The position numbers and the translations under genes are program-made. From Afifella aestuarii (lineage in GTDB: Bacteria; Pseudomonadota; Alphaproteobacteria; Rhizobiales; Afifellaceae), in the NCBI RefSeq assembly GCF_004023665.1, contig NZ_SAUF01000001.1:1102501-1166500 (forward strand): a stretch of 64,000 bases of DNA, read 5' to 3'. How positions within the stretch are numbered: the first letter of the stretch is position 1; each line of letters begins with the position of its first letter. Below are positions 114 to 64,000 of the stretch, one piece after another. Below the pieces are notes generated by a model. It worked only from the letters and a program-made list of their open reading frames with translations. It was not told where the DNA came from and searched no databases.

Positions 114-1103
114 ATGATGAAGCCAATCCTCGGGCTTGTGGCTGCGGCCTTTGCCCTCGGCATGGCCGGCAGCGCTGCCGCAGAGCCCTCGGGCACGCTC
201 ACCGTCTACACCTCGCAGCCGAGCGAGCAGATGCAGAGCGTGATTGCGGCGTTCAACAAGGATTATCCGGACGTTCAGGTAGAGCTCTTCCGCTCCGGGA
301 CGACCGAGGTGATGAACAAGCTGCTCGCGGAGTTTGCCGCAGGTTCCTCGCCCGCCGATGTTGTGCTCATCGCCGATGCCGTCGCCATGACGCAGCTCAA
401 AAATGACGGTCGGCTGATGACCTATGACGATGCGCCGATCGCCGATATTCCCGACGCGCTCATCGATCCCGACCACACCTTCTTCGGCACCAAGCTCATC
501 ACCACCGGCATCGTTTACAACACCAATCTCGTCGATAAGGCGCCGACCTCCTGGGCGGACCTGAAGGCCGAAGACGTCGCTTCCAAGACGACCATGCCGT
601 CGCCGCTTTATTCAGGTGCCGCCGTCATCCATGTCGGCACCATGGTGCAGCAGCCCGAGTTCGGCTGGGATTATTATGAGGCGCTTGCCGACAACGGCGC
701 CATCGCCGGGCAGGGCAATGGCTCCGTCATCGAGGCCGTCGCCCGCGGCGAGAAGGCCTATGGCATCATGATCGAATACATGGCCTTCAACGCCAAGAAG
801 AAGGGCTCACCGGTCGAGTTCGTGTTTCCGCAAGAGGGCGTGACCGCGATCTCGCAACCCGTGGCGATCCTGAAGTCGACCGACAATGCGGAAGCCGCCA
901 AAGCCTTCGTCGATTGGCAGCTTTCCAGGAAAGCGCAGGAACAGTCCGTGGCTCAGGGCTATTTCCCGATCTTCGACGATGTGACGCCGCCCGAAGGATA
1001 TCCGAAGGTCGGCAGCCTCAAGATCCTGCCGACAGACGCCGAGACGCTTCTTGAAAACGACCAGGCCAACAAGGAGAATTTCGCTGAGCTCTTCGGCGGT
1101 TGA
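114..1103 (+). CDS. ABC transporter substrate-binding protein (Fe(III)/phosphonate-type family)
   Basis: Periplasmic solute-binding protein of about 329 residues. The first 23 or so residues form a signal peptide (basic start, hydrophobic core, cleavage after an Ala-rich stretch before EPSGTL). The mature start LTVYTSQPSEQ is typical of the SBP family 1/6 proteins that bind ferric iron or 2-aminoethylphosphonate. I chose ATG 114 because AAAGGACG lies about 7 bases upstream; the reading frame is open from GTG 51, but that would add an unlikely charged leader. It is the first gene of an operon with the permease and ATPase that follow. The substrate cannot be read from the sequence: I could not identify with confidence the paired tyrosines used by FbpA-type iron binders. 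Family assignment is firm, substrate is not. Confidence 0.88.
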   Translation: MMKPILGLVAAAFALGMAGSAAAEPSGTLTVYTSQPSEQMQSVIAAFNKDYPDVQVELFRSGTTEVMNKLLAEFAAGSSPADVVLIADAVAMTQLKNDGRLMTYDDAPIADIPDALIDPDHTFFGTKLITTGIVYNTNLVDKAPTSWADLKAEDVASKTTMPSPLYSGAAVIHVGTMVQQPEFGWDYYEALADNGAIAGQGNGSVIEAVARGEKAYGIMIEYMAFNAKKKGSPVEFVFPQEGVTAISQPVAILKSTDNAEAAKAFVDWQLSRKAQEQSVAQGYFPIFDDVTPPEGYPKVGSLKILPTDAETLLENDQANKENFAELFGG

Positions 1104-2832
1104 TGTCGGTACGGCGGGCGCGGCCTCCTCGCGCCTGCCTCTCTTGCGCTTGCTTGAGCGCCATTTCCTCCTCGTTCTCGTTGCCCTCTATCTTGCGGCC
1201 TTCGCTTTGTGGCCGCTTGGACAACTCTTCGCCGAGGCACTGGCGGCCAACAAAGAGGGCGTGCTTTTCGGCACGTTCCTCGATCAATGGGAAAGCCGCT
1301 CCGCGATCCGCGCCCTGAGCCATACGCTCGAGGCGTCGTTTCTCTCCACGCTCGTCTCCGTCGTGATCGGGGCCGTTGCCGCCGTGCTCCTCGTCCTCAC
1401 CGATATGCGGTGGAAGGGCGCGATCGTCTTCATGCTGCTTTTGCCGCTCCTGATCCCGTCGCAGATCATGGCACTCGCCTGGATCGAGCTCACCGGTCCG
1501 ACGAGCCTGATCCTGGCGCCGCTCGGGCTTGCACCCGAACCCGGCATGACCAACCCGCTTTACTCCAAATGGGGCATCGTGATCGTCATGGGCGTCGAGC
1601 ATGCGGCTCTCGTCTTTTTGACGGTGCGCGCGGCGCTTTCTTCATTGCCCATGGATATCGTCGAAGCGGCGCAGCTCGCCGGCGCCCGGCCTCTTCGTAT
1701 CGTCATGCGCATCTTGATGCCTCTCGCCTTTCCCTCCGTCCTGAGCGGGGCTGCGCTCGCTTTCGTCGCTTCGATCGGCAATTTCGGCGTGCCGGCACTT
1801 CTCGGTATCCCGGGGCGCTACACGATGCTGACGACGCTCATCTATCAGCGCCTGCAAGGTTTTGGGCCGCAGGTGCTTGGTCAGGTCGCGGCCCTTGCCG
1901 TCATTCTGACTCTGATCGCCGCTGCTGGCCTTCTCATTCGCAGCCTCGTCGCGCGGCGTTTCGGAGCTGCCGTGGAACGCACCAGTGCGCCGCTCGTGCC
2001 GTTCCCGCTCGGCCGCGCGCGTTTGCCGGTCGAGGGTGTGTTTCTCGCCTTTCTGGCCGTCATTGCCATCCTGCCGCTCTTCGCCCTCGTCGGCACGTCG
2101 CTGTTGCCAGCGCTTGGCGTGCCACTGTCGTTCGAAACTCTGACGCTGGAGAATTATCGCTTCGTGCTTTTCGGCTACGAGGCGGCGCAGCGTGCCTTTA
2201 TCAACAGTTTCGCTCTCGCGCTTTCGGCCGCGATGATCAGTGCGGCGGTGGCCCTGCCGCTCGCCTATCTTTCGGTGATCGAGCGGCGTCCGCTTGCGCG
2301 CCTTCTCGACCTTTTCGCCGATGCGCCCTATGCCATTCCCGGCACGGTGCTCGCCATCGCCATTATCGTCGTCTTCCTGCCGCCGCTTCCTGGTCTCGGC
2401 GTCAGCCTCTACAATACCGGCTGGATCATCTTGGTCGCCTATCTCGCCCGTTTTCTCGCCCTCGTTCTGCGCCCGACGGTCGCTGCCATGGAAAGCCTCG
2501 ATCCGGGCATGGACGAGGCGGCGCGCGCTGCCGGTGCCGGCATGCTCACACGCCTCAAGGCCGTCGTCGCGCCGCTTCTCGCGCCGACGCTCGCGGCCGG
2601 TGGGCTTCTCATTTTCATGCAGGCTTTCAATGAGCTCACCGTTTCGGCGCTTCTTTGGTCGAGCGGATGGGAGACGCTCGGGGTCATGGTCTTTTTCCTG
2701 CATCGGGAAGGAAACACGACGGCGGCCGCGGCGCTTGCGACGCTCGCCTTGATCGCGGCACTCGGGCTTGCCGGCGTCGCGGCCCTCTTTGTGCGAAAGC
2801 TGCCTTCCGGAGTTGTGCCATGGCGGGGATGA
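1051..2832 (+). CDS. ABC transporter permease with two BPD domains (FbpB/ThiP-like)
   Basis: Inner-membrane permease of up to 593 residues. The length and repeated hydrophobic pattern show two fused binding-protein-dependent transport domains. Each carries an EAA-type loop that docks the ATPase: one near residues 205-225 (AAQLAGARPLR) and one near 488-508 (EAARAAGAGML). It forms the channel for the importer encoded by the flanking genes. The only start giving full length is TTG 1051, which overlaps the binding-protein gene by 53 bases. There is no in-frame ATG near the upstream stop; TTG 1144 and TTG 1150 are alternatives just before the first membrane segment. The real N-terminus is therefore uncertain. 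It probably shares its transcript with the genes on both sides. Confidence 0.85.
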   Translation: MKTTRPTRRISLSSSAVDVGTAGAASSRLPLLRLLERHFLLVLVALYLAAFALWPLGQLFAEALAANKEGVLFGTFLDQWESRSAIRALSHTLEASFLSTLVSVVIGAVAAVLLVLTDMRWKGAIVFMLLLPLLIPSQIMALAWIELTGPTSLILAPLGLAPEPGMTNPLYSKWGIVIVMGVEHAALVFLTVRAALSSLPMDIVEAAQLAGARPLRIVMRILMPLAFPSVLSGAALAFVASIGNFGVPALLGIPGRYTMLTTLIYQRLQGFGPQVLGQVAALAVILTLIAAAGLLIRSLVARRFGAAVERTSAPLVPFPLGRARLPVEGVFLAFLAVIAILPLFALVGTSLLPALGVPLSFETLTLENYRFVLFGYEAAQRAFINSFALALSAAMISAAVALPLAYLSVIERRPLARLLDLFADAPYAIPGTVLAIAIIVVFLPPLPGLGVSLYNTGWIILVAYLARFLALVLRPTVAAMESLDPGMDEAARAAGAGMLTRLKAVVAPLLAPTLAAGGLLIFMQAFNELTVSALLWSSGWETLGVMVFFLHREGNTTAAAALATLALIAALGLAGVAALFVRKLPSGVVPWRG

Positions 2833-3872
2833 GAGCCTCTGGTCTCGGCAAGCGTTTCGGCGAGACGGACGCCCTGCGTGCGGTCGACCTTGCCATCGAA
2901 AACGGAGAGTTCCTGGCGCTTCTCGGGCCTTCCGGTTGCGGCAAGACCACGCTGTTGCGCTTGATCGCCGGCTTTGAAGTGCCGGATGCGGGCGAATTGC
3001 ACCTCGGTGACGCGGTGGTGGCGCGGGCGGGCTGGGCGTTGCCGCCGGAAGAGCGCAATGTTGGCATGGTGTTTCAATCCTATGCGCTCTGGCCGCACAT
3101 GTCGGTCGCCGACAATGTCGGCTTTGCACTCAAGGTGCGCGGTCTCGACGCCAGCGAATGCCGCCGGCGGATCGAGGATGCGCTCGAACTCGTGGGGCTT
3201 GGCGGCCTCGCCAGGCGCAGGCCGGCGGAGCTGTCGGGCGGGCAGAAACAGCGTGTCGCGCTTGCCCGCTGTCTCGCCATGCAGCCCTCTGTCGTTCTTC
3301 TCGATGAACCGCTCGCCAATCTCGACGCGCATCTGCGTGAGGCGATGCAGATCGAGTTTCGCCGCTTTCACCGTGAGATCGGTGCCACCTTCGTCTACGT
3401 GACGCATGACCAGAGCGAGGCGATGGCGCTTGCCGATCGGGTCGCGGTGATGGATCGCGGCGCTTTGCAACAGGTCGCGGCGCCGCGGGAGCTCTACGCG
3501 GAGCCCGAAACCGAGATGGTGGCACGTTTCGTTGGACGCGGCATGGTCCTGCCGGTGACGGTTCTCGGGCATGAGAACGGCTTCATCGTCGCGGAGGCTT
3601 TTGGTGCGCAGATGAGGGTGAGGGGGCATGCGACGGCTGGAGAAGAGCGCCTTCTCTGCGTCCGACCTGCCGACCTCGCGCTGGATGGTGCCGGGATGGA
3701 AGCGCGCGTCACCGCAGCGGCTTTCCAAGGGGCGGCGACCATCGTGTCGGCGCAAATCGAACAAGGAGAACATGTTTTGAGGCTCGAATGCCATGGTCTG
3801 CCGCCTGAGGAAGGCGCGGCTGTCAGAATTTCCGTGCGTGATGGCTGGTTGCTGCCGGCGGGACGCGCGTGA
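2820..3872 (+). CDS. ABC transporter ATP-binding protein (FbpC/PotA-like)
   Basis: Cytoplasmic ATPase of about 350 residues that powers the importer. Visible motifs are Walker A (GPSGCGKTT, near residue 41), Q-loop (MVFQSYALWPH), signature (LSGGQKQRVALARCL) and Walker B followed by the D-loop (VVLLDEPLANLDA), with the H-loop in YVTHDQSEAM. The region after residue 235 matches the TOBE-type regulatory extension of this subfamily. ATG 2820 has GGAG 7 bases upstream and overlaps the permease gene; ATG 2829 forms an ATGA overlap with the permease stop and is the alternative. The stop overlaps the start of the next gene by one base, so all four genes look translationally coupled. Confidence 0.9.
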   Translation: MAGMRASGLGKRFGETDALRAVDLAIENGEFLALLGPSGCGKTTLLRLIAGFEVPDAGELHLGDAVVARAGWALPPEERNVGMVFQSYALWPHMSVADNVGFALKVRGLDASECRRRIEDALELVGLGGLARRRPAELSGGQKQRVALARCLAMQPSVVLLDEPLANLDAHLREAMQIEFRRFHREIGATFVYVTHDQSEAMALADRVAVMDRGALQQVAAPRELYAEPETEMVARFVGRGMVLPVTVLGHENGFIVAEAFGAQMRVRGHATAGEERLLCVRPADLALDGAGMEARVTAAAFQGAATIVSAQIEQGEHVLRLECHGLPPEEGAAVRISVRDGWLLPAGRA

Positions 3873-4954
3873 TGGCGTTGACGTTCAAGGCGCTGTCAGG
3901 GCTCGGCCCGAAACAGCCGGCGACCTTTCTCGTCGAGGCGGAGGGGCGGCGCATCATCTTCGATCTTGGAGAGGAGAAGGCGACCGGCCGACGTGCCGAT
4001 CTTTCAAATCTCGGCAAAGTCGACGCCGTCGTCATCAGCCATGGGCATTTCGACCATATCGGTGCGCTCGATAGCCTGGAGACGCTCGGCCATCCGGCAC
4101 TTTATGCGAGCGGATCGGTGCTTGCGCGTATCGACCGGCCGGCCAACGCGCGGGAACTCCCTGCGCAGGGCGAGACGGAAATCGCCGGCCTTCGCGCGAA
4201 GACCGGGCGCAACGGGCATGCGATCGGCGGGGTTTGGACCTTCCTCGATGTCGCGGGTGGATTTATCTATATGGGCGACCACACGGATGAATCGAACGTC
4301 TTCGCCTTCGATCCGCCGCCTGAAGCCGCGACCATCGTTCTCGATGCTTCCTACGGCGATGCGGACGAGCCGCGGTCGGCGCAAATCGGTGATGTGCTGC
4401 AGCTCACGGCAAGCGGACGTGTGCTCATCCCGGTCCCTCCGGATGGGCGCGGAATCGAGATGGCGCTGATTGCCGACGAGGCTGGGCGCAAGATTGCGAT
4501 CGACGAGAACGTGCGAACATATCTTCGGCGCATCGCCGGTCCCGATCGCGAATTTGCCGCGCCGGGCGTGGCGGAACGCGCCGGGCGCCTTGCCGAACGC
4601 GCAGATGATGCGGCCGATCCCGGGGCCAAGGCTGACGTCTTTCTCGCCGCCGATGCCGATGGGGATTTCGGCGTGAGCGGGGAGATTATCGATCGCCAAA
4701 TGCGCGACCTCTCCGTCGTCTTTACCGGTCATCTGCACAAATCGACGCGCGGGTACAAAATGGTGCAGGAAGGGAACGCCGTTTTCCGCCGCTACAACGT
4801 GCATCCGACATTGCCGCAGAACGTACGTCTGGCGCGTGCCGTGAACGCCTCAACGGTGGTTCCGGCCTTTGCCGATCCGGCGCATCTCAGCGCGTTCGAG
4901 ACCGCTTTCGCGCCTGCCCGTGTTGATCTCTCCGGTGCATTCGCGATCGGCTGA
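3872..4954 (+). CDS. MBL-fold metallo-hydrolase linked to the ABC importer
   Basis: Protein of 360 residues with the metallo-beta-lactamase zinc-site motif H57-G-H59-F-D61-H62, a later GDHTDES segment and a further metal-type histidine in FTGHLHK near residue 288. There is no signal peptide, so it is probably cytoplasmic. It starts at ATG 3872, overlapping the ATPase stop by one base (GTG 3869 is possible), which makes it the last gene of the importer operon. The fold is clear but MBL proteins hydrolyse many ester, phosphodiester and thioester substrates. The context suggests it processes whatever the transporter imports; this is inference. The gene ends three bases before the convergent ABC-2 permease gene ends. 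Confidence 0.8.
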   Translation: MALTFKALSGLGPKQPATFLVEAEGRRIIFDLGEEKATGRRADLSNLGKVDAVVISHGHFDHIGALDSLETLGHPALYASGSVLARIDRPANARELPAQGETEIAGLRAKTGRNGHAIGGVWTFLDVAGGFIYMGDHTDESNVFAFDPPPEAATIVLDASYGDADEPRSAQIGDVLQLTASGRVLIPVPPDGRGIEMALIADEAGRKIAIDENVRTYLRRIAGPDREFAAPGVAERAGRLAERADDAADPGAKADVFLAADADGDFGVSGEIIDRQMRDLSVVFTGHLHKSTRGYKMVQEGNAVFRRYNVHPTLPQNVRLARAVNASTVVPAFADPAHLSAFETAFAPARVDLSGAFAIG

Positions 4955-8852: not shown

Positions 8853-9973
8853 TCTGCGCCCGTCATCGCGCCCCCGGGCTCAGGCTCGGGCGCGCCCTTT
8901 TGCGGCAGATTGACCTTGAGGTTATCCGGCCACTCAGCGCTGCCGTCGATCTTCACATAGGCCATCCCCGGCAGCCCCGTTTTCACGTAGCGGATATGTT
9001 CCTTCAGAAGGTCGGTGGGGATTTGGGCCTTGATGCGGAACATCAGTTTCTGCCGCTCTTCGGCGGTTTCCACCGTCTTCGGCGTGAATTGAGCGACATC
9101 GGCGACGTAGGAAATGGTCGCCGGGATCACATATTGCGGGGCGGCGTCGAGGACTATGCGGGCTTCGGCACCGAGCGCCACGCGACCTGCCTGAAGTGTC
9201 GGCAGGAAGAACGTCATGTAGACATCCGACAGATCGACGAGGTTCAAAATCGCGCTGCCGGCATTTACGACTTCGCCAGGCTCGGCGATGCGGTACTGCA
9301 CGCGCCCGATCCGCGGCGATGTGAGGGTGCTGTCGTCGAGATCTGTCTTGATCCGCTCGACCGTGGCACGCATCGCGTCCACCTGTGCCTCCGCCGTCAC
9401 GACGCCCGAGCGTGCATAGCCGAGAGCCGCATCGGCGGCTGCCACTTTGGCCTTTGCCGCGGCAAGGGCGGCCTTGGCGCCTTCGAAAGCGGCCTTGTCG
9501 TCGTCGTATTGTTGCACGGAACCGGTGCCGCGTTCCTGCAAGGTCTGGCTGCGGGTAAGACGTTTTTCCGCGGCTTCGAGCGTCGCCTCTTGCTGTGCAA
9601 CGGTGGCTTCGGCGGCTTCTTTTTCCGCCTGGCGCTGCGTGACCTGGCTGTTTGCCGTTTCGATGCCGATCTCGGCAGAGCGCAATTGTGCCTCGGCTTC
9701 GCGCAACTGCGCCTCAAGCGTAGCGGTATCCATCTTGGCGAGTTTTTCGCCGGCGGCGACATAGTCGCCTTCTCGCACATAGACGTCCTGCAGGCGGCCG
9801 GCCGTCTTGCTTGCGATGTCGATCTCGACCGCTTCGATCCGGCCGTTGCTCGAGGCGAGGGCTGCGTTCTCGTTCTCGCCGGTCACCATGGCCCTGATTT
9901 CGGGCCAATAGGAATAACCGACGCCGAGGATGAGAGCCGCGACGATGAGGACGAGGAGAAGCTTTCTTGTCAT
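8849..9973 (-). CDS. yhiI: HlyD-family periplasmic adaptor, YhiI-like
   Basis: Membrane-fusion protein of 374 residues. A single N-terminal membrane anchor (residues 5-24) is followed by a biotinyl-lipoyl-like half ([13 protein letters not shown]), a long alanine-rich coiled coil (about 90-215) and the returning beta-barrel region. The family bridges inner-membrane transporters and outer-membrane channels. ATG 9973 follows a non-coding gap and is probably the first gene of the three-gene exporter operon; its end overlaps the rbbA-like start by ATGA. No TolC-like gene lies nearby, so the outer-membrane partner must be encoded elsewhere. Confidence 0.88.
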
Positions 9974-10152
9974 GGAGGCGGGCCGGTCTTCGCTGGCGGC
10001 GTGGGAGCCGCGGCAGGCGCCGCCACTTCGCTGCCGCTTCGCCTAAAAGGTACTCCGGCGGACCTATCCTGGCAAGCCGAAGCTTGAGCCGATCATGGGT
10101 CCCTCATGTTTATAGACCAGCCGATGCGCGGTGGCATGCCCGCGAAAGAAAT

Positions 10153-10180
10153 AGCCGCTCCGCAAGGCTGCGGAGCGGCT
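10153..10180 (-). terminator. Rho-independent terminator of the che operon
   Basis: A perfect 12-bp stem (10153-10164 with 10169-10180) encloses a 4-base loop, starting 5 bases after the cheR stop. On the minus strand it is preceded by AAAA and followed by a T-rich run (ATTTCTTTC), as expected for intrinsic termination. On the plus strand only TTT follows. It closes the long leftward chemotaxis transcript. Confidence 0.8.
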
Positions 10181-10185
10181 TTTGA

Positions 10186-11022
10186 TCAGGCCGCGACGAC
10201 GGCCGATTGGCTTGCTGCCAGCCCGTAGAGGTTGCGCTGCCCGGGGACGAGCGTGAACTTGCTGCTCACACCAACGACCGTCTCGGCGCCGCCGAGCACG
10301 AGATAGCCGTCCGGCCGCAAATTGCGGGAGACCCGATCGAGGATGTCACCCTTCGTGGTCGCGTCGAAGTAGATCAGCACATTGCGGCAGAAGACGATGT
10401 CGAGCATGCCGAGGGTCGTGAAGGAGTGCAGCAGGTTGAGATTTCTGAACGTCACCATGCGCCGGATATCGTCGGAAATCTGCCAGTTTTCTCCACTCTT
10501 CTTGAAATATTTGAGGAGGAGCTGAACCGGCAGGCCGCGCTGAACCTCAAACTGCGTGTAGATGCCGGCGCTCGCCCGTTTCAGCATGTCGTCGGAAATG
10601 TCGGTCGCGATGATCTCGACCTTGCGACCGCCGACCATGCCTACTTTCTCGCGAAGGATCATGGCGAGAGAGTAGGGCTCCTGGCCGGAGGAGGCTGCCG
10701 CGCACCAGATGCGCAAAGGCTGCGTCACGGGGCGATTGCGCAACAGTGTCGGCAGCATCACGTCGCTGAACAGGTCGAACGGCGTTTTGTCTCGGAAGAA
10801 AAAGGACTCGTTGGTCGTCATCGCATCGACGACCGCCTTGCCGATTTCCATGGAACCCTGCCGCAACTTTGCGGCAAGTGCTGCGATGCTCGGCAGCCCG
10901 AAATGCGTCGCTACCGGAAGCAGACGGGACTCGAGCAGGTAGGTTTTCCCCTCCTGCAGCACGAGACCCGATTGCGCCTTCAGATATCTCTGGAAGAACT
11001 CGTAGTCCGCAGGTGTGATCAT
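10186..11022 (-). CDS. cheR: Chemotaxis protein methyltransferase CheR
   Basis: CheR (278 residues) transfers methyl groups from S-adenosylmethionine to glutamates on chemoreceptors for adaptation. The N-terminal helical domain spans about 1-75. The SAM domain shows the family segment [15 protein letters not shown] (usual form S-T-G-E-E-P-Y-S, here S-S-G-Q) and the [10 protein letters not shown] motif. It overlaps cheB by 4 bases (ATGA), so CheR and CheB, the opposing adaptation enzymes, are coupled. It is the last gene of cheA-cheW-cheY-cheB-cheR and is followed at once by a terminator. Confidence 0.95.
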
Positions 11023-12212
11023 GAGCGTCCCCCTGAGATTCGCCGAACCACGCGGGGTCCGATTTCCGTTATCGGTAGAATTTCGGAGCAGGCTCCGACC
11101 TCTGCGGTTGCGCCTGGCATGCCCCAGACCACGCTCGAAGCTTCGTCCTGCGCGATGACGGCGCCGCCGCCGTCGGCGATGATGGTCGCGCCCTTGGCAC
11201 CGTCGGAGCCCATGCCGGTGAGAACGAGAGCAAGGGTCGCGCTGCCGTAGACGTCGGCGATCGATTGAAACATTGGATCCACTGCCGGCTTGCAGAAGTT
11301 GACGGGCGGTGCATCCGAGAGCTTGATCACCGTGGTGCCGTTCGATTTTGCCACCAGCATGTGCTTGCCACCCGGAGCCACGTAGATGTGACCGGGACGG
11401 ACGGGCTCGCCATCGATCCCCTCGGCGGCCGGACGACCCGACGCCTTGGCGATGTGCTCGGCCAGGATCGTGGTGAAGGTCGGCGGCATGTGCTGTGTCA
11501 CGAACACCGGGATGGTTGTCAGCGCACTGCCGGCATCGGTGAAGAAGCGCGTCAGTGCCTGCGGACCGCCAGTAGAGCTGCCGATCGCCAGGGCACGCAC
11601 CGCGCTCATTGATGCGGGGCGCAGACGGACCTTAGGCTTGGCCGCGGCGGGGATGACAGCCGCACGTGCGGCTGCCGGCGCCGATGCCCCCGGCGTCTGC
11701 CGGGCGGTGGCCGGAGCCGGCGTGCGGAAGCTCTTGCCGCGACGAACCCCGGCACCAAGGCTGCGTACCTTGGAAATCAGGTCGTGGCGGAAGTCGGCCG
11801 CGGCCAGCAGGCCGTTGGTGGAATCGGGTTTGGGGACGTAATCGGCTGCTCCCAAGGTCAGAGCACGAATGCTGACCTCGGCGCCACGGCGCGTGAGCGT
11901 CGAGGCCATGATGACGGCCGTGCCCGGTCGCTTTTCGAGAATGAGGGGCAGAGCCTGCAGCCCGTCCATCTCCGGCATCTCGATGTCGAGAATGGCGACA
12001 TCGGGCTGGGACCGGACGACGTCATCCACCGCCCGCCGCCCGTTGGGATGGGAGGCGATGAGAGTGAGGTCCGGCTCCTCGGAGATCCAGCGGGAGAGGA
12101 TGCCGCGAATGAACGCGGAATCATCGACCACCATGACACGGATAGGCTCGTCGCTCTTCGGGCGGACCGCAGCGGGGCGGGCGCCAGGCGGAGGTGCGGC
12201 GATCGCGTTCAT
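11019..12212 (-). CDS. cheB: Chemotaxis response regulator protein-glutamate methylesterase CheB
   Basis: CheB (397 residues) demethylates or deamidates receptor glutamates when phosphorylated by CheA. The receiver domain (about 25-145) has the DD pair in VMVVDDS and the phosphoacceptor Asp in [13 protein letters not shown]. An Ala/Pro-rich linker (about 160-200) joins it to the esterase domain. The catalytic triad is visible as Ser in AIGSSTGGP, His in VTQHMPP and Asp in LTGMGSDGA. Its ends overlap cheR and the cheY gene by 4 bases each, indicating translational coupling. Confidence 0.96.
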
Positions 12213-12586
12213 GTTGCCCTCGCCAGAATGCCGACGGATTCCAGCTTCTCGCGCAGGATGTCGGCGTCATAGGGCTTCATGATGTATTCGTCGGCACCGT
12301 CCTCGATGGCGCGCGCGATGTGATCGAGATCATTCTCGGTCGTGCAGAAGATCACCCGCGGAGCCTCACCGTCCGGCCGCTGGCGCAGAGCCCGGAGGAA
12401 ATGCGGACCGTCGGTGACCGGCATGTTCCAATCCAGAAGGATCGCATCCGGCATTGCTTCCTGGCACCGCTCCATCGCGGTCTCGCCATTGTCGGCTTCG
12501 CGCACCTGGAAGCTCATCTCTTCCAGCATGCGTCGGGCCACCTTTCGAACAACGGAGGAATCATCCACCACAAGGCAGGTTTTCAT
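12209..12586 (-). CDS. cheY: Chemotaxis response regulator CheY
   Basis: Single receiver domain of 125 residues with every catalytic residue: the DD pair in LVVDDSS (D8, D9), phosphoacceptor Asp in AILLDWNMP, Thr in IFCTTEN, and Lys in YIMKPYD. It is the likely CheA-phosphorylated messenger that binds the flagellar motor. Alphaproteobacteria often carry several CheY proteins, so this one may be a phosphate sink rather than the motor-binding form; sequence alone does not decide. The end overlaps cheB by 4 bases; 27 bases separate it from cheW. Confidence 0.93.
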
Positions 12587-57802: not shown

Positions 57803-59442
57803 ACGTGGCTGATCTACCTTTTCTCACAGGGCCGGCGCGGCCGGATGGCAAGGCGAGTGCGGGCGGGAAGGGCGCGGCGGAGGCGGGGGACGGCTTCGCG
57901 AAGCTCATGCAGAATGGCGCTGCGGAGGCGGAGAAAAAGCCCGCTGCAGATGTCACGTCGAGAGCCCAAGACACTGACATAAAAGAGAAAAATGCCGGCG
58001 CGAAAGGACGCGACGGCGCAAGCGGTGAAGCGGCCGACGAGACCGGCGGCGCCGAGGATGCGGCGGCGCGGCTGAGGCGGCGTATCGCCAGTGCGGAGGG
58101 CCAGGAAAACCAAACGAAAACAAAGACTTCCGACGAAGACCCGCGGATCGCCATGCGCCGGGCCGAGGCGCAGAAACGCGAAAAGGACGCGGCGGCGAAG
58201 GTGGCCGGCGAGGCGGGCGCGGAAAAGACCGCAGAGACCGCAGACGACGGCGCTAACACGCTGACGGATAAAGAGATTTCGTCGGATCTGCAGGCGTCCG
58301 AGCCCGCCGAGGAGAGTACGAAACCGCAGGATAAATCGCGCCCAGATGAGGCAAAATCGGGCGAAAAAGCTGCGCAAACCATCGATTTCGCGGCGGATGC
58401 GCTCGCGAACGTCGTCGATGCGGGAAAAACCAACGAGGCGGGTGGGGCAAAGACGCAGAATGGCGCCTCAGGGCTCTTCCCCGGCGCCCGTGCCGTCACG
58501 CAAGCCTTTGAAGGATATAAGCTTTCTGGCGAGGCGGGGACAACTCCCTACGTCATGCACCGGGTCGACGTGATCCAGCAGGAAACGAACTTCGCGCCGG
58601 TGCTGACGCCCGGATCGCGCTTCGCACAGGCGCTTTCGACCGCCGAGCTGTCGCAGAAAACCGTGTCTGCGGAAGGGCTTAGCACGCAAGCGGCGGGGCC
58701 GGAGCTGGTGCTTGGGCGCGAGGCGCGCGGTCAGGGCCGGGCGGGCGCGCAGGAGCGGGGAGAAGCCGCACTCTCGGCGAAGTTGGCCGAGACTCGCGCT
58801 GCGACCGCTAAGACCGCGGACCTGGCCGAGGCCGGGGCCGACGGGGACAATGCCGGGCTTCCGGGCGGCGAGTTGAAGCGGATCGCGGATGCGATCGTCG
58901 CAGAAAACCGCGGTGGCGGCGGATCGCAGACCGCGGAGACGGGGCGCTCGGCGAATTCCGCGGCATCTGCCAATTCGCCGGCGCAGCAGGCGTTCAACAG
59001 CCCGGCGCGGCTGTTGCGCATCCAGTTGCACCCGGAATCGCTCGGCACCGTTCAGGTGGAACTCCGCATGCGCCAGGGCGAACTTTCGGTGACGTTGAAG
59101 GCGAGCCGGCCGGAGACCGCCCGCATGCTGGAAGAGGACAGCCACAAGCTGTCGGAGATCCTGAAGGCGGCCGGGCAGGAGCCCGACAGCGTGACCATTC
59201 AGTCTGAACGCGCGCTGCCGCAGATCGATACATCGTCGAATGCGGCACGCTCCGGCATCGCGTTTGCGATGGGCAACGGCTCCGCGAATGGCGGGCCGCA
59301 GGCCGGCACGCAACAGGGCGGGGCCGGCGAGAATGGAACCGGCGGCCAGAATGGCGGCGGACAACAGACCCAAACCCCAGAGGAGCAGAGACATGGCCAG
59401 GCTTCTGAGGAAAACCGCTCTCGCGGCGGCCTGTTCGTTTAG
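57799..59442 (+). CDS. fliK: Flagellar hook-length control protein FliK (MotD)
   Basis: Molecular-ruler protein of 547 residues. The first 380 are disordered and rich in Ala, Lys, Glu and Gly; the C-terminal Flg_hook domain (about 390-475) shows LLRIQLHPESLGTVQVELRM and LSVTLKASRPETARML. In S. meliloti the gene at this position was first called motD and later identified as fliK. The last 50 bases overlap the lytic transglycosylase gene in another frame. Gly/Asn-rich tail from about 490. Confidence 0.92.
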   Translation: MNVADLPFLTGPARPDGKASAGGKGAAEAGDGFAKLMQNGAAEAEKKPAADVTSRAQDTDIKEKNAGAKGRDGASGEAADETGGAEDAAARLRRRIASAEGQENQTKTKTSDEDPRIAMRRAEAQKREKDAAAKVAGEAGAEKTAETADDGANTLTDKEISSDLQASEPAEESTKPQDKSRPDEAKSGEKAAQTIDFAADALANVVDAGKTNEAGGAKTQNGASGLFPGARAVTQAFEGYKLSGEAGTTPYVMHRVDVIQQETNFAPVLTPGSRFAQALSTAELSQKTVSAEGLSTQAAGPELVLGREARGQGRAGAQERGEAALSAKLAETRAATAKTADLAEAGADGDNAGLPGGELKRIADAIVAENRGGGGSQTAETGRSANSAASANSPAQQAFNSPARLLRIQLHPESLGTVQVELRMRQGELSVTLKASRPETARMLEEDSHKLSEILKAAGQEPDSVTIQSERALPQIDTSSNAARSGIAFAMGNGSANGGPQAGTQQGGAGENGTGGQNGGGQQTQTPEEQRHGQASEENRSRGGLFV

Positions 59443-60025
59443 CCTGATCGCGGCGACCTGCGGGGCGGCGGGGGCGGCCGCCACGCTCGGCGACGGGGCC
59501 GGCGCGGCCGGCAAGGCGGCGGGGAAGGCTGCGGGCGGCAATATCTGCGAGCGCGAAATGGCGGTCGCGGCGAAGAAATACGGCGTGCCGCTCGGCGTTC
59601 TTTATGCCGTCGGGCTGACGGAGACGGGGCGCAAAGGCTCGCTGCAGCCCTATGCCATGAACATTCACGGCCGCCCGTTCTTCGGCAAGAGCGTGGCCGA
59701 CGCCCTCGACGAATTCAAACGCTCGCGCGCCGCCGGGTCCAAGCTGATCGACATGGGCTGCATGCAGATCAACCATTATTTCCATTCCGAACATTTCGAG
59801 TCCCCGGCCGAAATGTTCAATCCGAAGAAGAACGTCGATTACGCGGCGCGGTTTTTGACCAATCTTCGCAAGCGCGAGGGCAGCTGGACGCTCGCCGTTG
59901 CCCGCTACCATGCCGGGCCCAACAACAACCCGGCGCAGAAGCGCTATGTCTGCGCCGTCATCACCAACATGGTGGCGACGGGGTTTGGGGCGTGGACGAA
60001 GGAATCGAAGGAGTTTTGCGGGTAG
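59393..60025 (+). CDS. Flagellar-type lytic transglycosylase, SltF-like
   Basis: Protein of 210 residues: signal peptide (1-28, Ala-rich) and an SLT-type lysozyme-like domain (about 50-165) with the catalytic-type Glu in VGLTETGRKG and the family motif MGCMQINHYFH and AVARYHAGPNN. It likely cleaves peptidoglycan so the rod can pass. Because the FlgJ encoded at 24144 lacks a muramidase domain, this separate enzyme probably supplies it, as SltF does in Rhodobacter sphaeroides. ATG 59393 has AGGAG upstream, inside the end of fliK. Confidence 0.88.
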   Translation: MARLLRKTALAAACSFSLIAATCGAAGAAATLGDGAGAAGKAAGKAAGGNICEREMAVAAKKYGVPLGVLYAVGLTETGRKGSLQPYAMNIHGRPFFGKSVADALDEFKRSRAAGSKLIDMGCMQINHYFHSEHFESPAEMFNPKKNVDYAARFLTNLRKREGSWTLAVARYHAGPNNNPAQKRYVCAVITNMVATGFGAWTKESKEFCG

Positions 60026-60357
60026 GGGGTAGGCTGGTGAAGTGGACGGCGGAGATGGGGCGAAAGTGGACCTACCGCTTCCGGGTATACGAAGCTCTTT
60101 GGCGGACATCTGTTTAGCTGACTGTTAGACTGGCAAACCTAAGGAAAACGCTCACGCTTTTCGTCCGCTTCACGGTTTCTGATGTTCATACAGGCGGTTG
60201 GAGCAGATAGATGACACACGCTTGGTTCGCTTCTAAATGCTCGACCCCGACAACGTCCTTCCTGCCACCGTTGAGCTTCTGATTTGACATCTGATGTTGT
60301 GCTCGATTGAAAGGTTCAGGGTGAATACCAAGCTCGGGAGCGTGCCCGCGTGACGCA
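60026..60357. other. Boundary region without a clear gene
   Basis: About 330 bases between the flagellar genes and the large convergent gene. A 100-codon minus-strand frame crosses 60186-60488 but overlaps the large gene and has no family resemblance. I see no tRNA, repeat end or transposase fragment. Base composition looks lower in GC than its neighbours by eye, which may mark the edge of an inserted segment. Confidence 0.5.
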
Positions 60358-63300
60358 TCATCGCCCCTCTCTAAGCGTCGCATGCAGCAGAAAGTGGCCC
60401 CGCAACCAACCCCACACGTATTCCGACAGGCCGAACGTGCCGTGCGACAAAGCGAGAATGGTCTGCAAGATAATTGGGTAATCGCCATCCCGTTCGCGAA
60501 CTAACTGGCGCAGCAGATGCCCGGTCACCGGCTGTCGGTAGCTGACGGTGCGATGATCTGTCCAGAGGTCGTCCAGGCAGGCGACCACCGCCTGCACGTG
60601 CGAGATTGTTTCCGCCGCACGACCGCCGATCGTTTTGCTCAAAGTCCGAAAAAGATAGCCGGGCGCATCATCCTTAGCCGCGTCGAGACGCGCCGCGTGG
60701 GCCAAGTCCGCGCCTGACATGCCAAGGTAGTTGTGTCCTGCATCGACCAAGGCGGCCGACCAGCGCACGTACTGGTCGAAATCGGCGTGCTTCCAGTCCA
60801 CGGCGATGCCGAAAACCACGTGCAGCCAAGCGCCGCCGTGACCGCCCACGATTCGGTCGGCCTGTCGCGTGGGCAGGTCGTCGGTGACGAGCAATGTTCC
60901 AGATTGTCGGGCGAGGATTAGGCTGTCGAAGATGTCAGATCTCCCGAGGCGCAGATGCTTCCGCAAGCCCTCCGGCAGATCGTCGCTCGCCACCACCGGC
61001 GACACTGTCGCGTTCGCCTCTGCCCAAGCAATAGCACGGTCGATCTCGTCGCGCAGACCGACGACCACCTCCGCCGGCACCTCACGCAGCACGAGCCTGC
61101 CGTCCTCGTAACCTGCGCTCCTGTGGCCGTCGCGCGCCGAGAACTCGAACTGCTCTCGACGTCCCCGGAGCCGGTCCAACACGCTCTGCGGCAGATGGAT
61201 CCGCCCGCAGGTTGACTGCACGGCGTCGAGCGCATCAAGCCGCCACGCCGTCCAGAACGCGAGGAGGTCGAGCACGCAACCGCGGCGGGCGTTCTCGCGG
61301 ACTGCCCCGCTGGCAGACTCGCGCTCATCCAGGTTGCCAAGCGCAACCTTGAGCTTCACGCCGTGCCCGGCCAGCCCGTTCGCCACCTCGATCGTGTCCA
61401 TCCCGACCCGGTGCGCGAGGACGCCGAGTGGCATCGGGCTGTTGAGGTATCGGCTTTCCTCCTCCTCGATCCAGTCGCGCCGCGCCTTGACTTCAGCGAT
61501 CAGGCAGTCGAGTCCGCCATGCCGCTCGACGTCGACCGATACGCTCTTAAAGCCGGTGATCTCAGGAAAGCGCGTCTCGTGATGCTCCATAACGAAGTGG
61601 AGCCGGGCGACGTACTTGTGACGAACTCGGCAAACGACGCCTTCGCGTCCATCTGGCCCAGTGAAGCGCTCACCCGCTTTGAGCCCTGTCACGGACCGTG
61701 CCACCGCGTGGTCAGGCTCCCAAGACTCCGGGTCGAACTTTCGCAAAGCCGCGTCCGGCTCGACGACGAAGAAAACTTTAGTGCCGTCGTCATACACGAG
61801 ATCCACCGCGGCGTTCGAACAGACCTCCGACGCGTTCCACAGCCGCGGCTTGTCCTCCTCACCTCGGCCTTCGTCCAGGACGAGCATTGACAGCGTCATC
61901 CAAGCCCGGGACAGATCACGATGTTGCAGGAACAGCCGGTACGCGAGGTCGGCAGCGCGCTCTGTGAAGCCGAAGTGGCCGAGCAGTGACGCCAAGCGGA
62001 ACTGGTCGCTCGGTCGCTTCCACAGCAAGCGTTCGAGCGGCTTCTCCAACTCCGCAAAGAGTTCGACGGAGCGGTCCTGGCGAACGAGTATCTCGATCTT
62101 AAGCAGACGTGCCTGCGACTGGTCCGGCTCTTGGGCGAGCAATTCGTCAACGGCCGTCATTGCGGCGGTGAGGTCGCCTAAGTTCCAGGAGTGCGCGGCG
62201 ACGGTCCAGAGCGTCTCCGGGTCATTGAGTACCTCCGGTGCGGCCTCGGCCAGAGCCGCCCGGAATGCTGCATCGCGACGGGCCCCAGCCAAGCTCTGGA
62301 GGAACAAAGATGTCAACGGGCTACGCCGTGTCAGATCGACATGCCCTTCGAGAAGTCTCGATGCCTCCTCCGGCATATCCTGGTTCCGCAGCTCATCGGC
62401 CAAGAAGTAGCGGGACACCGTGTCGAAATCGGCTGGGACGGATGCCGCCAGCGCTCGCAGCCGCTCTTGGGCGGTGTCCTCATCCGCCACCGTCTCCCGC
62501 TCGCTCCGAATCTGCAGCAGGCTCGCGCTGATATCCTGCGGGTTAAGGGAGCGCAAGCCAGCAACTGCCGCGTCAAGGCTTGCCTGATCGTTGATGCGCA
62601 GGGCGCACTCGCCGACGATCCGCCACCGAAGCCGTTGTAGCCGCTCCGGCAGATCATCAGTTTCGATTGCACGCGCGTCCGCCATGGCGCTGACTGCCTG
62701 GCCAGCGGAGATTTTTAACTCAGCACGAAGGATCTGGTTTTCCGGATCGGTGTCCCCATCGAGCCCGGCGATGGCTTCTTCGTACCGATCCCGAACCGAG
62801 CGGATCAAGGCCAACAGTCGCCGCAGTTGCGGTTGATCGCCGACCTTCGGCATCCCGCGCACGAGGAGTGCTTCGGCCTCGCCGTGGCGCTCGCAGAGCC
62901 GGAGCAGGACCGCGGCATTGTTCAGATGGACCATCAGGTCGTGCGTATCGGCGAACCCGATGTCGAGGCAGTGTTCGGCTAGGGCCTTCATGTCGTCGGC
63001 TGCTGCGCTCAGCTCGACGTTGGTCACCGGACCGTGGCCGCCCGGGATGATCGCCCCGCACTCGACCGCCAGCGACAGAACGGCGATGGCGCGAACACGC
63101 TTGAACTCCGGTACGTCGGCATGGCGGCGCGCCATCTCGAGGCTTCGTTCGGCCCAGCCTGGTACGTCTCGGCGGCGCAGGAATTCCGCTATGCCGATGT
63201 CCGCCTGCGCCGAGCCCACCAGGTCAGGTGGGATAAGCGTCTCGGGATCTCCCAGCCAGTCCGACCGTGCGGCCGCTTGGAGCAGGTAACCTACCGCGTG

Positions 63301-64000
63301 ATCCGCCCGTGGGGCGCCATTGAGGGCGGTTTTCGCCGCGGTCATAGCCTCATCGAACCGCCCCTGTATGGTCCGGGCCAAGGCCAGATTCGCCAGCGCG
63401 TTGGGATCTCCTGGGCGGACTGCGTGCGCGGCCTCGAAGTGGGTGGCCGCTTCCGCCTCGCGTCCAAGATCGATTGCAATCGAGCCGAGGTTCGTCTCGA
63501 CGCGGTATCGCGCCCATGGCTCCGCCGAAAGGTCTTCCTTTGCTAGGATTGCTCGCAGCCCCTTCTCGGCTAGCAGCGGTTCGCCTTCATCCTTGAAAAG
63601 ATCGCGGAAAGTGTCGATACGGGCGTGGAGCGCCGGATCTTCATCAGCGCTGGCAGTACCCTCACGGGGCGCGACGGTCAGGGTCGCGCCGCGCATTTGC
63701 TCCACGACTTGCGCCGCAACGAACGCCGCAAATTCGGGCGTGCCTGCTGGCGCGGTTATGCTCTGGGGTGTCGAGCTAGCGACCGCAGAGGGATGGAAGG
63801 CGTTATGCGCCACCTCGTGGAGCGCGATGATCGTCTGCAGCTGACCCCATCCGTAAACCACGACTGTCAGGTCGTGTCCTTCGGCCCTCAGTGTCCGGGT
63901 GACGGCGATAGCGGCGTCGGAAGCGGTCGTGTCGTCCGGTGCCGTGGTCGCGAAGATGAGTTCCTTCAAGCCCGCCTTGAGCTTAAGCGCCTCGCGGGCA
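60358..64000 (-). CDS. Large multidomain protein, 5-prime partial: nuclease-like tail, TPR-like repeats, GreA/B-C-like and PIN-like segments
   Basis: At least 1,213 codons; the frame is still open at the window end, so the true start lies beyond it (the TTG at 63969 is only the last start-like codon). Reading from the N-terminus: the segment at about 63800-64000 (LIFATTAP, then VVVYGWGQLQ) resembles the C-terminal part of PDDEXK-type nuclease domains in defence proteins; 61870-63560 is a helical TPR-like array; 61560-61800 resembles the C-terminal domain of GreA/GreB (VVEPDAALRKF, GLKAGERFTGPDG); 60830-61290 resembles a PIN ribonuclease (CVLDLL, IFDSLILARQSG, LLVTDDLPTRQ, four acid positions). 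Domain names are my recognition from memory. The gene lies outside the flagellar regulon and points against it. Confidence 0.75.
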   Translation of the reverse strand, partial: AREALKLKAGLKELIFATTAPDDTTASDAAIAVTRTLRAEGHDLTVVVYGWGQLQTIIALHEVAHNAFHPSAVASSTPQSITAPAGTPEFAAFVAAQVVEQMRGATLTVAPREGTASADEDPALHARIDTFRDLFKDEGEPLLAEKGLRAILAKEDLSAEPWARYRVETNLGSIAIDLGREAEAATHFEAAHAVRPGDPNALANLALARTIQGRFDEAMTAAKTALNGAPRADHAVGYLLQAAARSDWLGDPETLIPPDLVGSAQADIGIAEFLRRRDVPGWAERSLEMARRHADVPEFKRVRAIAVLSLAVECGAIIPGGHGPVTNVELSAAADDMKALAEHCLDIGFADTHDLMVHLNNAAVLLRLCERHGEAEALLVRGMPKVGDQPQLRRLLALIRSVRDRYEEAIAGLDGDTDPENQILRAELKISAGQAVSAMADARAIETDDLPERLQRLRWRIVGECALRINDQASLDAAVAGLRSLNPQDISASLLQIRSERETVADEDTAQERLRALAASVPADFDTVSRYFLADELRNQDMPEEASRLLEGHVDLTRRSPLTSLFLQSLAGARRDAAFRAALAEAAPEVLNDPETLWTVAAHSWNLGDLTAAMTAVDELLAQEPDQSQARLLKIEILVRQDRSVELFAELEKPLERLLWKRPSDQFRLASLLGHFGFTERAADLAYRLFLQHRDLSRAWMTLSMLVLDEGRGEEDKPRLWNASEVCSNAAVDLVYDDGTKVFFVVEPDAALRKFDPESWEPDHAVARSVTGLKAGERFTGPDGREGVVCRVRHKYVARLHFVMEHHETRFPEITGFKSVSVDVERHGGLDCLIAEVKARRDWIEEEESRYLNSPMPLGVLAHRVGMDTIEVANGLAGHGVKLKVALGNLDERESASGAVRENARRGCVLDLLAFWTAWRLDALDAVQSTCGRIHLPQSVLDRLRGRREQFEFSARDGHRSAGYEDGRLVLREVPAEVVVGLRDEIDRAIAWAEANATVSPVVASDDLPEGLRKHLRLGRSDIFDSLILARQSGTLLVTDDLPTRQADRIVGGHGGAWLHVVFGIAVDWKHADFDQYVRWSAALVDAGHNYLGMSGADLAHAARLDAAKDDAPGYLFRTLSKTIGGRAAETISHVQAVVACLDDLWTDHRTVSYRQPVTGHLLRQLVRERDGDYPIILQTILALSHGTFGLSEYVWGWLRGHFLLHATLREGR

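What the first reader, a model, noticed from the sequence alone, without database searches (positions are those of the whole stretch)
60358..64000. Candidate conflict/antiphage protein: nuclease-like, TPR-like, GreA/B-C-like and PIN-like parts in one chain
Directly seen: a single open frame of more than 1,210 codons with a long helical repeat array, a segment like the GreA/GreB C-terminal domain and a segment with the spaced acids of PIN ribonucleases. The N-terminal remnant ATTAP...YGWG recalls the end of PDDEXK nuclease domains that sit at the front of several large defence proteins. Inference: the TPR part senses a trigger, the GreA/B-C-like part may bind RNA polymerase or NTPs, and the PIN part cuts RNA, giving abortive protection. 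The gene abuts the flagellar cluster and runs against it, consistent with acquisition. I did not recall a named system with exactly this order.
Basis: partly seen in the sequence, partly recalled or inferred. Interest (0 to 1): 0.75.

Follow-up and report, generated by a model that had tools for sequence, protein, structure and literature searches.

The report
Known TPR-GreAB-C-PIN defence-type protein
This gene makes a large four-part protein of an already described bacterial conflict family that probably attacks the nucleic acids of invading viruses; the useful addition is that it sits at a spot on the chromosome where two close relatives carry other genes, in one case a known type of defence pair.

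Summary
The window holds the last 1,213 codons of a 1,320-codon gene that starts beyond position 64000. All four parts were recovered: an Mrr-type restriction-endonuclease-like front (weak, below cut-off), TPR repeats, a GreA/GreB C-terminal-like domain (shown at family level only), and a PIN domain matching Pfam PF20698, "PIN domain associated with the TPR-GreAB-C-PIN system" (E 4e-26). Kaur et al. (eLife 2021, PMC8195603) described this architecture, with REase among the swappable N-terminal domains, so it is a new member of a known kind. New here: in two same-genus genomes (RpoB 99-100% identical) the same slot holds unrelated DNA, a PADLOC PD-Lambda-5 pair in one and a 1,228-aa P-loop protein in the other. 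The closest copies (81-85%) are in another family, in an unclassified alphaproteobacterium and on a plasmid. Seven of 15 plasmid neighbourhoods hold known defence systems, against 0-1 of 15 same-plasmid controls (unblinded). A QxK-to-QxR change at the expected catalytic lysine is shared by this protein and five relatives. Anti-phage function and RNA-polymerase docking remain predictions.

The parts
60358..64000 (-). TPR-GreAB-C-PIN protein, codons 108-1320 of 1,320 (gene runs to 64320, beyond the window)
63751..64000 (-). C-terminal half of the Mrr/REase-like N-terminal domain (aa 36-190; would run to 64215). Expected catalytic Asp75 and the QxK-to-QxR position (Arg93) lie beyond the window
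   Evidence: Mrr_cat E 0.0018 on the segment, below cut-off; alignment A4; residues; coordinates
61831..63603 (-). TPR / helical repeat region (about aa 240-830; limits approximate)
   Evidence: TPR_2 and TPR_14 over cut-off, other TPR models weaker, best stretches at aa 277-304 and 702-743
61531..61809 (-). GreA/GreB C-terminal-like domain with following KHK...LH...FP segment (aa 838-930)
   Evidence: profile A2 finds GreB and GreA; PF01272 in 9 of 14 segments, not in this one; GreA and GreB at ranks 2 and 3 in Foldseek with a weak model
60856..61275 (-). PIN domain PF20698 (aa 1016-1155); candidate acids D1018, D1049, D1132, D1148; invariant R1152
   Evidence: conservation counts
60361..60825 (-). 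C-terminal part (aa 1166-1320) with an invariant Gly-His-Phe (aa 1308-1310, window 60391-60399)
   Evidence: 14 of 14 sequences
60029..64000 (.). Variable chromosomal slot: the stretch from about 60029 to about 64553 is replaced by DNA without BLASTN similarity in two same-genus genomes
   Evidence: contents of the replaced slots

Best explanation
A horizontally acquired, stand-alone TPR-GreAB-C-PIN conflict protein with an REase-like N-terminal domain. Shown here: the domains, the acquisition, and a chromosomal slot whose content differs among close relatives, once being a PD-Lambda-5 pair. Inferred: it works as an intracellular anti-invader protein. The TPR array holds the protein inactive and/or senses an invader product; the GreA/B-C domain docks on the beta-prime coiled coil at the RNA polymerase secondary channel, as in GreA/GreB; the PIN domain then cuts RNA near the polymerase; the REase-like front is a second, DNA-directed part. 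In this subclade the expected catalytic lysine of the REase QxK motif is arginine, so the front may bind DNA with little or no cutting. My split: identity as this family 0.97; anti-invader role about 0.75; RNA polymerase docking about 0.4.
For: PF20698 match and the published description with REase among the N-terminal domains. GreB/GreA found by the family profile. PIN acids conserved: D1018 in 13 of 14 (E in 1), D1049 in 12 of 14, D1132 in 13 of 14, D1148 in 14 of 14. Slot content different in 2 of the 4 other genomes of the genus, with a PD-Lambda-5 pair and a large P-loop protein in its place. AAP81b copy 82% identical although RpoB is 72%. 22 of 72,556 plasmid records, 17 of the 22 typed conjugative or mobilizable. 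Known defence systems within 8 kb in 7 of 15 plasmid neighbourhoods against 0 of 15 controls, or 1 of 15 if a NACHT protein is counted (Fisher p 0.006 or 0.035).
Against: No experiment on this family was found, in narrow searches of the held library only. PADLOC has no model for this protein. The GreA/B-C match is absent for this protein on its own. The PIN profile found no significant solved structure by sequence (best 0.14, an unrelated protein; RNA-free RNase P entries only at 0.46 and weaker). One of 14 members lacks two of the four PIN acids as Asp (E for D1018, A for D1132). Structure models were poor (mean pLDDT 48.7 and 38.7). For G077 the gene is no more similar than RpoB (81% each). 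The defence-neighbour count was mine, unblinded and by annotation, and the plasmids are not independent. The methyltransferase of the PD-Lambda-5 pair also matches a type II methyltransferase model (E 3e-91).
Confidence: 0.65

Rival explanations
1. Same family and same anti-invader role, but the GreA/B-C domain is a structural or recognition module (FKBP-like fold) that binds a phage protein, and the PIN cuts tRNA or free mRNA, not transcripts at RNA polymerase.
For: The paper relates GreA/B-C to FKBP-like peptidyl prolyl isomerases. The Gre N-terminal coiled coil that reaches into the secondary channel (recalled) is not among the Pfam hits of this protein; what precedes the domain is TPR. A conserved KHK...LH...FP segment follows the domain, and the GreA/GreB matches end before it.
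Against: A Gre-type motif around SPxAxxLxGkxxGD is largely kept (that it is the polymerase-binding part is recalled), and the best PDB sequence matches are Gre factors.
Confidence: 0.3
2. The protein serves plasmid or mobile-element competition (inter-element exclusion) more than phage defence.
For: Present on 22 plasmid records, 17 typed conjugative or mobilizable; in one case beside relaxase and type IV secretion genes.
Against: The window copy is chromosomal (contig of 1.78 Mb), in a slot that in a same-genus genome holds a PD-Lambda-5 pair, and 7 of 15 plasmid neighbourhoods hold classical defence systems.
Confidence: 0.15
3. A housekeeping RNA-processing protein linked to flagellar or c-di-GMP function because of its position.
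Against: The other 4 genomes of the genus in the sample lack it and two have other genes there; only 13 of 397 genomes of the order are over cut-off; plasmid carriage.
Confidence: 0.02

Closest known systems
TPR-GreAB-C-PIN conflict system (Kaur et al., eLife 2021, PMC8195603; Pfam PF20698)
   Same: Domain order TPR, GreA/B-C, PIN at the C-terminus; REase is among the listed N-terminal domains; stand-alone gene; PIN well above the Pfam cut-off
   Different: REase QxK is QxR in this subclade; the copy sits in a chromosomal slot with exchanged content, which the section I read does not mention (supplements not seen)
GreA/GreB/Gfh1 transcript-cleavage and anti-cleavage factors
   Same: C-terminal domain by family profile
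   Different: No Gre N-terminal domain among the Pfam hits; the domain sits in a 1,320-aa multidomain protein
DS-3 and DS-5 PIN-containing defence systems (DefensePredictor, PMC13092281; passages seen)
   Same: PIN ribonuclease in phage defence, catalytic residues needed for protection
   Different: DS-3 is described as a PIN split between N- and C-terminus, DS-5 as a two-protein system; no TPR-GreAB-C architecture is mentioned in the passages seen; not compared by sequence
GapS6b (NCBIfam NF047936)
   Same: Weak TPR-region match, 26.1 bits
   Different: Cut-off is 850 bits; not a member

Membership tests
TPR-GreAB-C-PIN conflict system | PIN domain of the PF20698 type | tested here: met
   E 3.9e-26, 92.4 bits, cut-off 27.8
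TPR-GreAB-C-PIN conflict system | TPR array before the GreA/B-C domain | tested here: met
   TPR models at about aa 277-341 and 702-743, two over cut-off
TPR-GreAB-C-PIN conflict system | GreA/B C-terminal domain between TPR and PIN | tested here: met
   At family level: GreB E 9.9e-6, GreA 2.9e-4; 9 of 14 segments match PF01272 at E <= 0.1, this one alone does not
TPR-GreAB-C-PIN conflict system | Variable N-terminal effector domain | tested here: met
   REase-like front recognisable by alignment in 11 of 14 members, not in 3 (L023, L027, L028); of 6 plasmid frames read, in 5, not in L052. For this protein Mrr_cat is below cut-off
TPR-GreAB-C-PIN conflict system | Mostly stand-alone genes with few conserved neighbours | tested here: met
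   Only long gene in the replaced stretch of about 60029-64553
TPR-GreAB-C-PIN conflict system | Acts on invader-engaged RNA polymerase | not testable with these tools
   A prediction of the authors, not a measured property
Active PDDEXK (Mrr-like) endonuclease | D...QxK catalytic motif (motif recalled) | tested here: not met
   Asp75 present; Arg93 (QCR) in place of Lys in this protein and in L019, L024, L047, L048, L049 (6 of 16 REase-bearing sequences read), Lys in the other 10
PIN ribonuclease, active | Set of conserved acidic residues (pattern recalled) | tested here: met
   D1018, D1049, D1132, D1148 present in this protein; activity not testable
GapS6b | NCBIfam NF047936 above its cut-off | tested here: not met
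   26.1 of 850 bits, TPR part only

The most novel reading that the evidence does not exclude
The QxR subclade has turned its REase front from a second effector into a DNA-reading sensor: the protein grips invader DNA with a non-cutting endonuclease fold, holds RNA polymerase through the GreA/B-C domain, and uses only the PIN domain to destroy the transcript, a self-contained co-transcriptional RNA restriction enzyme. The shared Arg, the kept Asp and the movement through a defence-type slot fit this and do not prove it; a nearby Lys after QCR (KP, seen in most of the subclade) could also take over catalysis.
Probability: 0.15. Interest if true: 0.65.

Novelty: new member of a known kind. Interest (0 to 1): 0.36.

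Why it matters
I found no experiment on the TPR-GreAB-C-PIN family in the held library; the description I read infers it from domain logic. A slot that holds this gene in one genome and a PD-Lambda-5 pair in a close relative, together with plasmid copies beside Gabija, Shedu, CBASS and Pycsar genes, gives positional evidence that it is a defence module. The slot, next to a GGDEF/EAL gene, is a place to look for more such genes. If the docking idea holds, it would be a defence protein that acts at the transcribing polymerase.

Tried and rejected
Housekeeping or flagellar role: disfavoured by presence/absence and slot replacement. GapS6b membership: rejected; a paper search for GapS6b gave 0, a search for GAPS6 returned 67 papers, and the 20 listed were unrelated. 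PADLOC: no model matched this protein; weak PADLOC hits in 1-2 of 14 relatives (PDC-S70, LmuA, PDC-M16B) were not pursued.

Viral contigs: the single-protein scan found no relative (5 pattern matches, none confirmed). The genome-contig scan gave one relative, L019 (34 pattern matches, 1 confirmed).

Structure prediction: REase domain of L019 alone, mean pLDDT 48.7; no Foldseek match with E <= 0.001 and no nuclease among the 50 listed. GreAB-C to C-terminus on 2 sequences, mean pLDDT 38.7, only the GreA/B-C-like part moderately confident; a GreA and a GreB entry at ranks 2 and 3 (E 0.045 and 0.050, probability 1.00), with methyltransferases at ranks 1, 4, 5 and 7, and nothing with E <= 0.001. 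The PIN part was not modelled well enough to compare.

PDB sequence searches with the PIN and REase profiles gave nothing significant. G+C of the gene does not stand out from its flanks. No tRNA in the 19 kb around it. No sigma-70-like promoter by consensus in L002:8700-9300. A second protein from the neighbourhood (threonine-dehydratase-like) was tried as a divergence yardstick, but only 32-35% matches were found, so it told nothing.

Papers listed but not opened: PMC9503650, PMC10853773, PMC10907252, PMC10910872, the six, those. PMC7159879 was seen only as passages.

Rows dropped: two genomes of the order with matches below the family cut-off (G188, G360) were left out of alignment A1. The three members without a recognisable REase front were left out of A4 by my reading of A1. 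Of the 22 plasmid records, 15 neighbourhoods were read; H3, H9 and H10 (near-copies of H2 and H8 by their rows) and H19-H22 (partial matches) were not. The H14 stretch was cut to 12.3 kb by the record end. Toxin-antitoxin pairs, lone methylases and CHAT proteins were not counted as defence on either side; PADLOC was run only on chosen neighbours, not on the controls, so the 7 and the 0-1 are both counts by annotation. Three controls were shifted from the exact opposite point to fit the record.
Full report
What is there. The window ends inside a gene on the minus strand. The window is G000:C1:1102501-1166500; the next DNA was fetched (L002) and the gene is complete there: L002:4859-8821, 1,320 aa, GTG start, window coordinates 60358-64320. 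It gives the only PF20698 match in this genome.

Domains. The PIN region (aa 1016-1155) matches PF20698, "PIN domain associated with the TPR-GreAB-C-PIN system", E 3.9e-26. TPR models match around aa 277-341 and 702-743. The GreA/B-C region is not found in this protein alone by Pfam, but a profile of 14 relatives (A2) finds a GreB (2p4v, E 9.9e-6) and a GreA (1grj, 2.9e-4) as the first two of all PDB sequences, followed by a GreA/GreB-family entry at 0.15, and 9 of 14 segments match PF01272 on their own at E <= 0.1. A weak model of the C-terminal 491 residues placed a GreA and a GreB entry at ranks 2 and 3 in Foldseek, behind a methyltransferase and without a significant E-value. The front (aa 40-137) resembles Mrr restriction endonucleases below Pfam's cut-off (E 0.0018 on the segment).

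Conservation. Across 14 sequences (this protein, AAP81b, and the 12 other sampled genomes of the order over the family cut-off) the PIN acids are D1018 (13 of 14, E in one), D1049 (12 of 14), D1132 (13 of 14) and D1148 (14 of 14), with R1152 and a C-terminal Gly-His-Phe invariant. That these four are the catalytic acids is inference from the usual PIN pattern. The REase motif D...QxK keeps its Asp, but the Lys is Arg in this protein and in L019, L024, L047, L048 and L049 (55 to 85% identical to this protein), while the 10 other REase-bearing sequences read have Lys. A loss or change of DNA cutting in this subclade is possible; a replacement by another Lys cannot be excluded.

Known or not. Kaur et al. 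[quoted passage not shown] section 7 (read whole) says that the N-terminal EAD10 is replaced in other examples by 1 of 13 different effector domains including REase, that the genes mostly stand alone, and proposes docking on RNA polymerase with PIN cleavage of the transcript and the N-terminal effector as a second line. The present protein is a member by the features testable here. No paper on an experimental test was found: searches and 118 of the held open-access library only; several listed papers were not opened. A 2026 paper shows other PIN proteins (DS-3, DS-5) defending against phage with catalytic residues needed (PMC13092281, passages seen).

Genomic position. In G107 the flanks L002:13-4529 and 9065-12509 align at 87-95% nucleotide identity, in G071 the flanks 584-4530 and 9054-11715 at 90-96%; between them the window genome has this gene and the two have 3.4 and 4.3 kb without BLASTN similarity to it. 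A 1,145-residue piece of RpoB is 99 and 100% identical. In G107 the slot holds a D12 adenine methyltransferase and a 481-aa protein whose best PADLOC matches are the two PD-Lambda-5 components (E 5.9e-106 and 6.6e-23); the methyltransferase also matches a type II methyltransferase model at 3e-91. That PD-Lambda-5 is a tested anti-phage system is recalled. In G071 it holds a 1,228-aa protein with a P-loop-like GTSGSGKS seen in its translation, a sub-threshold HEAT match, and no PADLOC match; calling it a STAND-like defence protein is inference. A third same-genus genome (G138) aligned only on the GGDEF side in the stretch fetched; the fourth (G166) lacks a close copy of the flanking GGDEF gene. 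None of these four has the family. The 261-aa open frame on the other flank (window 59240-60025) looks like a lytic transglycosylase by eye; NCBIfam gave no hit.

Transfer. The closest copies are in AAP81b (82%; an unclassified alphaproteobacterium), in G077 of another family of the order (81%), and on a Skermanella mucosa plasmid (84.8% over 77%, interrupted by an IS66 element). RpoB identity to the AAP81b genome is only 72% and to G077 81%, while the 11 other members in A1 are 20-26% identical. So the gene has moved between lineages; for G077 alone the comparison would not decide it.

Neighbourhoods. 22 of 72,556 plasmid records have a match; 10 are typed conjugative and 7 mobilizable, and some are near-copies. 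In the 15 neighbourhoods read, 7 carry recognised defence genes within 8 kb: Mesorhizobium (TIR, Pycsar cyclase, E1-E2), Agrobacterium (SIR2, Gabija), Rhizobium johnstonii (Gabija, Shedu-type), Qipengyuania (Gabija), Sinorhizobium (Gabija-like pair, Shedu, E1-E2), Salipiger (CBASS phospholipase) and Allorhizobium (SIR2, DUF262). PADLOC matches at least one component in 6 of the 7; Allorhizobium, and those named genes not sent to PADLOC, rest on annotation. In 15 control stretches of 20 kb taken opposite or nearly so on the same plasmids, 0 carry such genes by annotation, or 1 if a NACHT protein in Bosea is counted; Fisher p 0.006 or 0.035. I made the calls unblinded, PADLOC was not run on the controls, and the plasmids are not independent, so this is supportive and no more.

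Frequency. 13 of 397 genomes of the order and 10 of 398 of the phylum are over the family cut-off (the samples overlap and include the window's own genome).

Verdict. The protein is a new member of the published TPR-GreAB-C-PIN kind. The slot that elsewhere holds a PD-Lambda-5 pair and the QxR subclade are the additions worth keeping.

Noticed in passing
L053:6663-7994, L058:6642-7976, L054:7104-7994: On three plasmids the gene follows, 9 bp downstream, a 239-aa protein matching Abi_2 (over cut-off in L053, just under in L058) with a HEPN-like RNxxxH seen in the translation, itself preceded by a helix-turn-helix protein; in L054 the 239-aa protein is shortened to 91 aa, and L050 keeps a similar 43-aa stretch. 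A possible partner operon, although the published account speaks of few conserved neighbours.
   Followed up: partly
L049:6465-7923: In Mesorhizobium a RES-domain protein overlaps the start of the gene by one base and is preceded by a 259-aa unknown protein.
   Followed up: no
L047:8001-14715: The Skermanella plasmid copy is split by an IS66 element inside the PIN region.
   Followed up: no
L002:9274-11801 (beyond the window): The GGDEF/EAL gene beside the slot is in two frames in the window genome, whereas same-genus relatives have one open frame of 854-883 aa at that place; about 0.15 kb present in G107 and G071 is missing.
   Followed up: no
L002:15395-16991 (beyond the window, minus strand): A C5-cytosine methyltransferase beside a Vsr-type endonuclease, about 7 kb from the gene.
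   Followed up: partly
L032:6915-11552 and L033:2225-5701: Long open frames (1,545 and 1,158 aa) with sub-threshold PF20698 matches (two in L033), possibly distant variants.
   Followed up: no
window 60391-60399: An invariant Gly-His-Phe near the C-terminus in 14 of 14 members, outside the Pfam matches of this protein; role unknown.
   Followed up: no
L045:4085-7771: A 1,228-aa P-loop protein in the same slot of a same-genus genome, with no Pfam match over cut-off and no PADLOC match; a candidate unlisted defence protein.
   Followed up: partly
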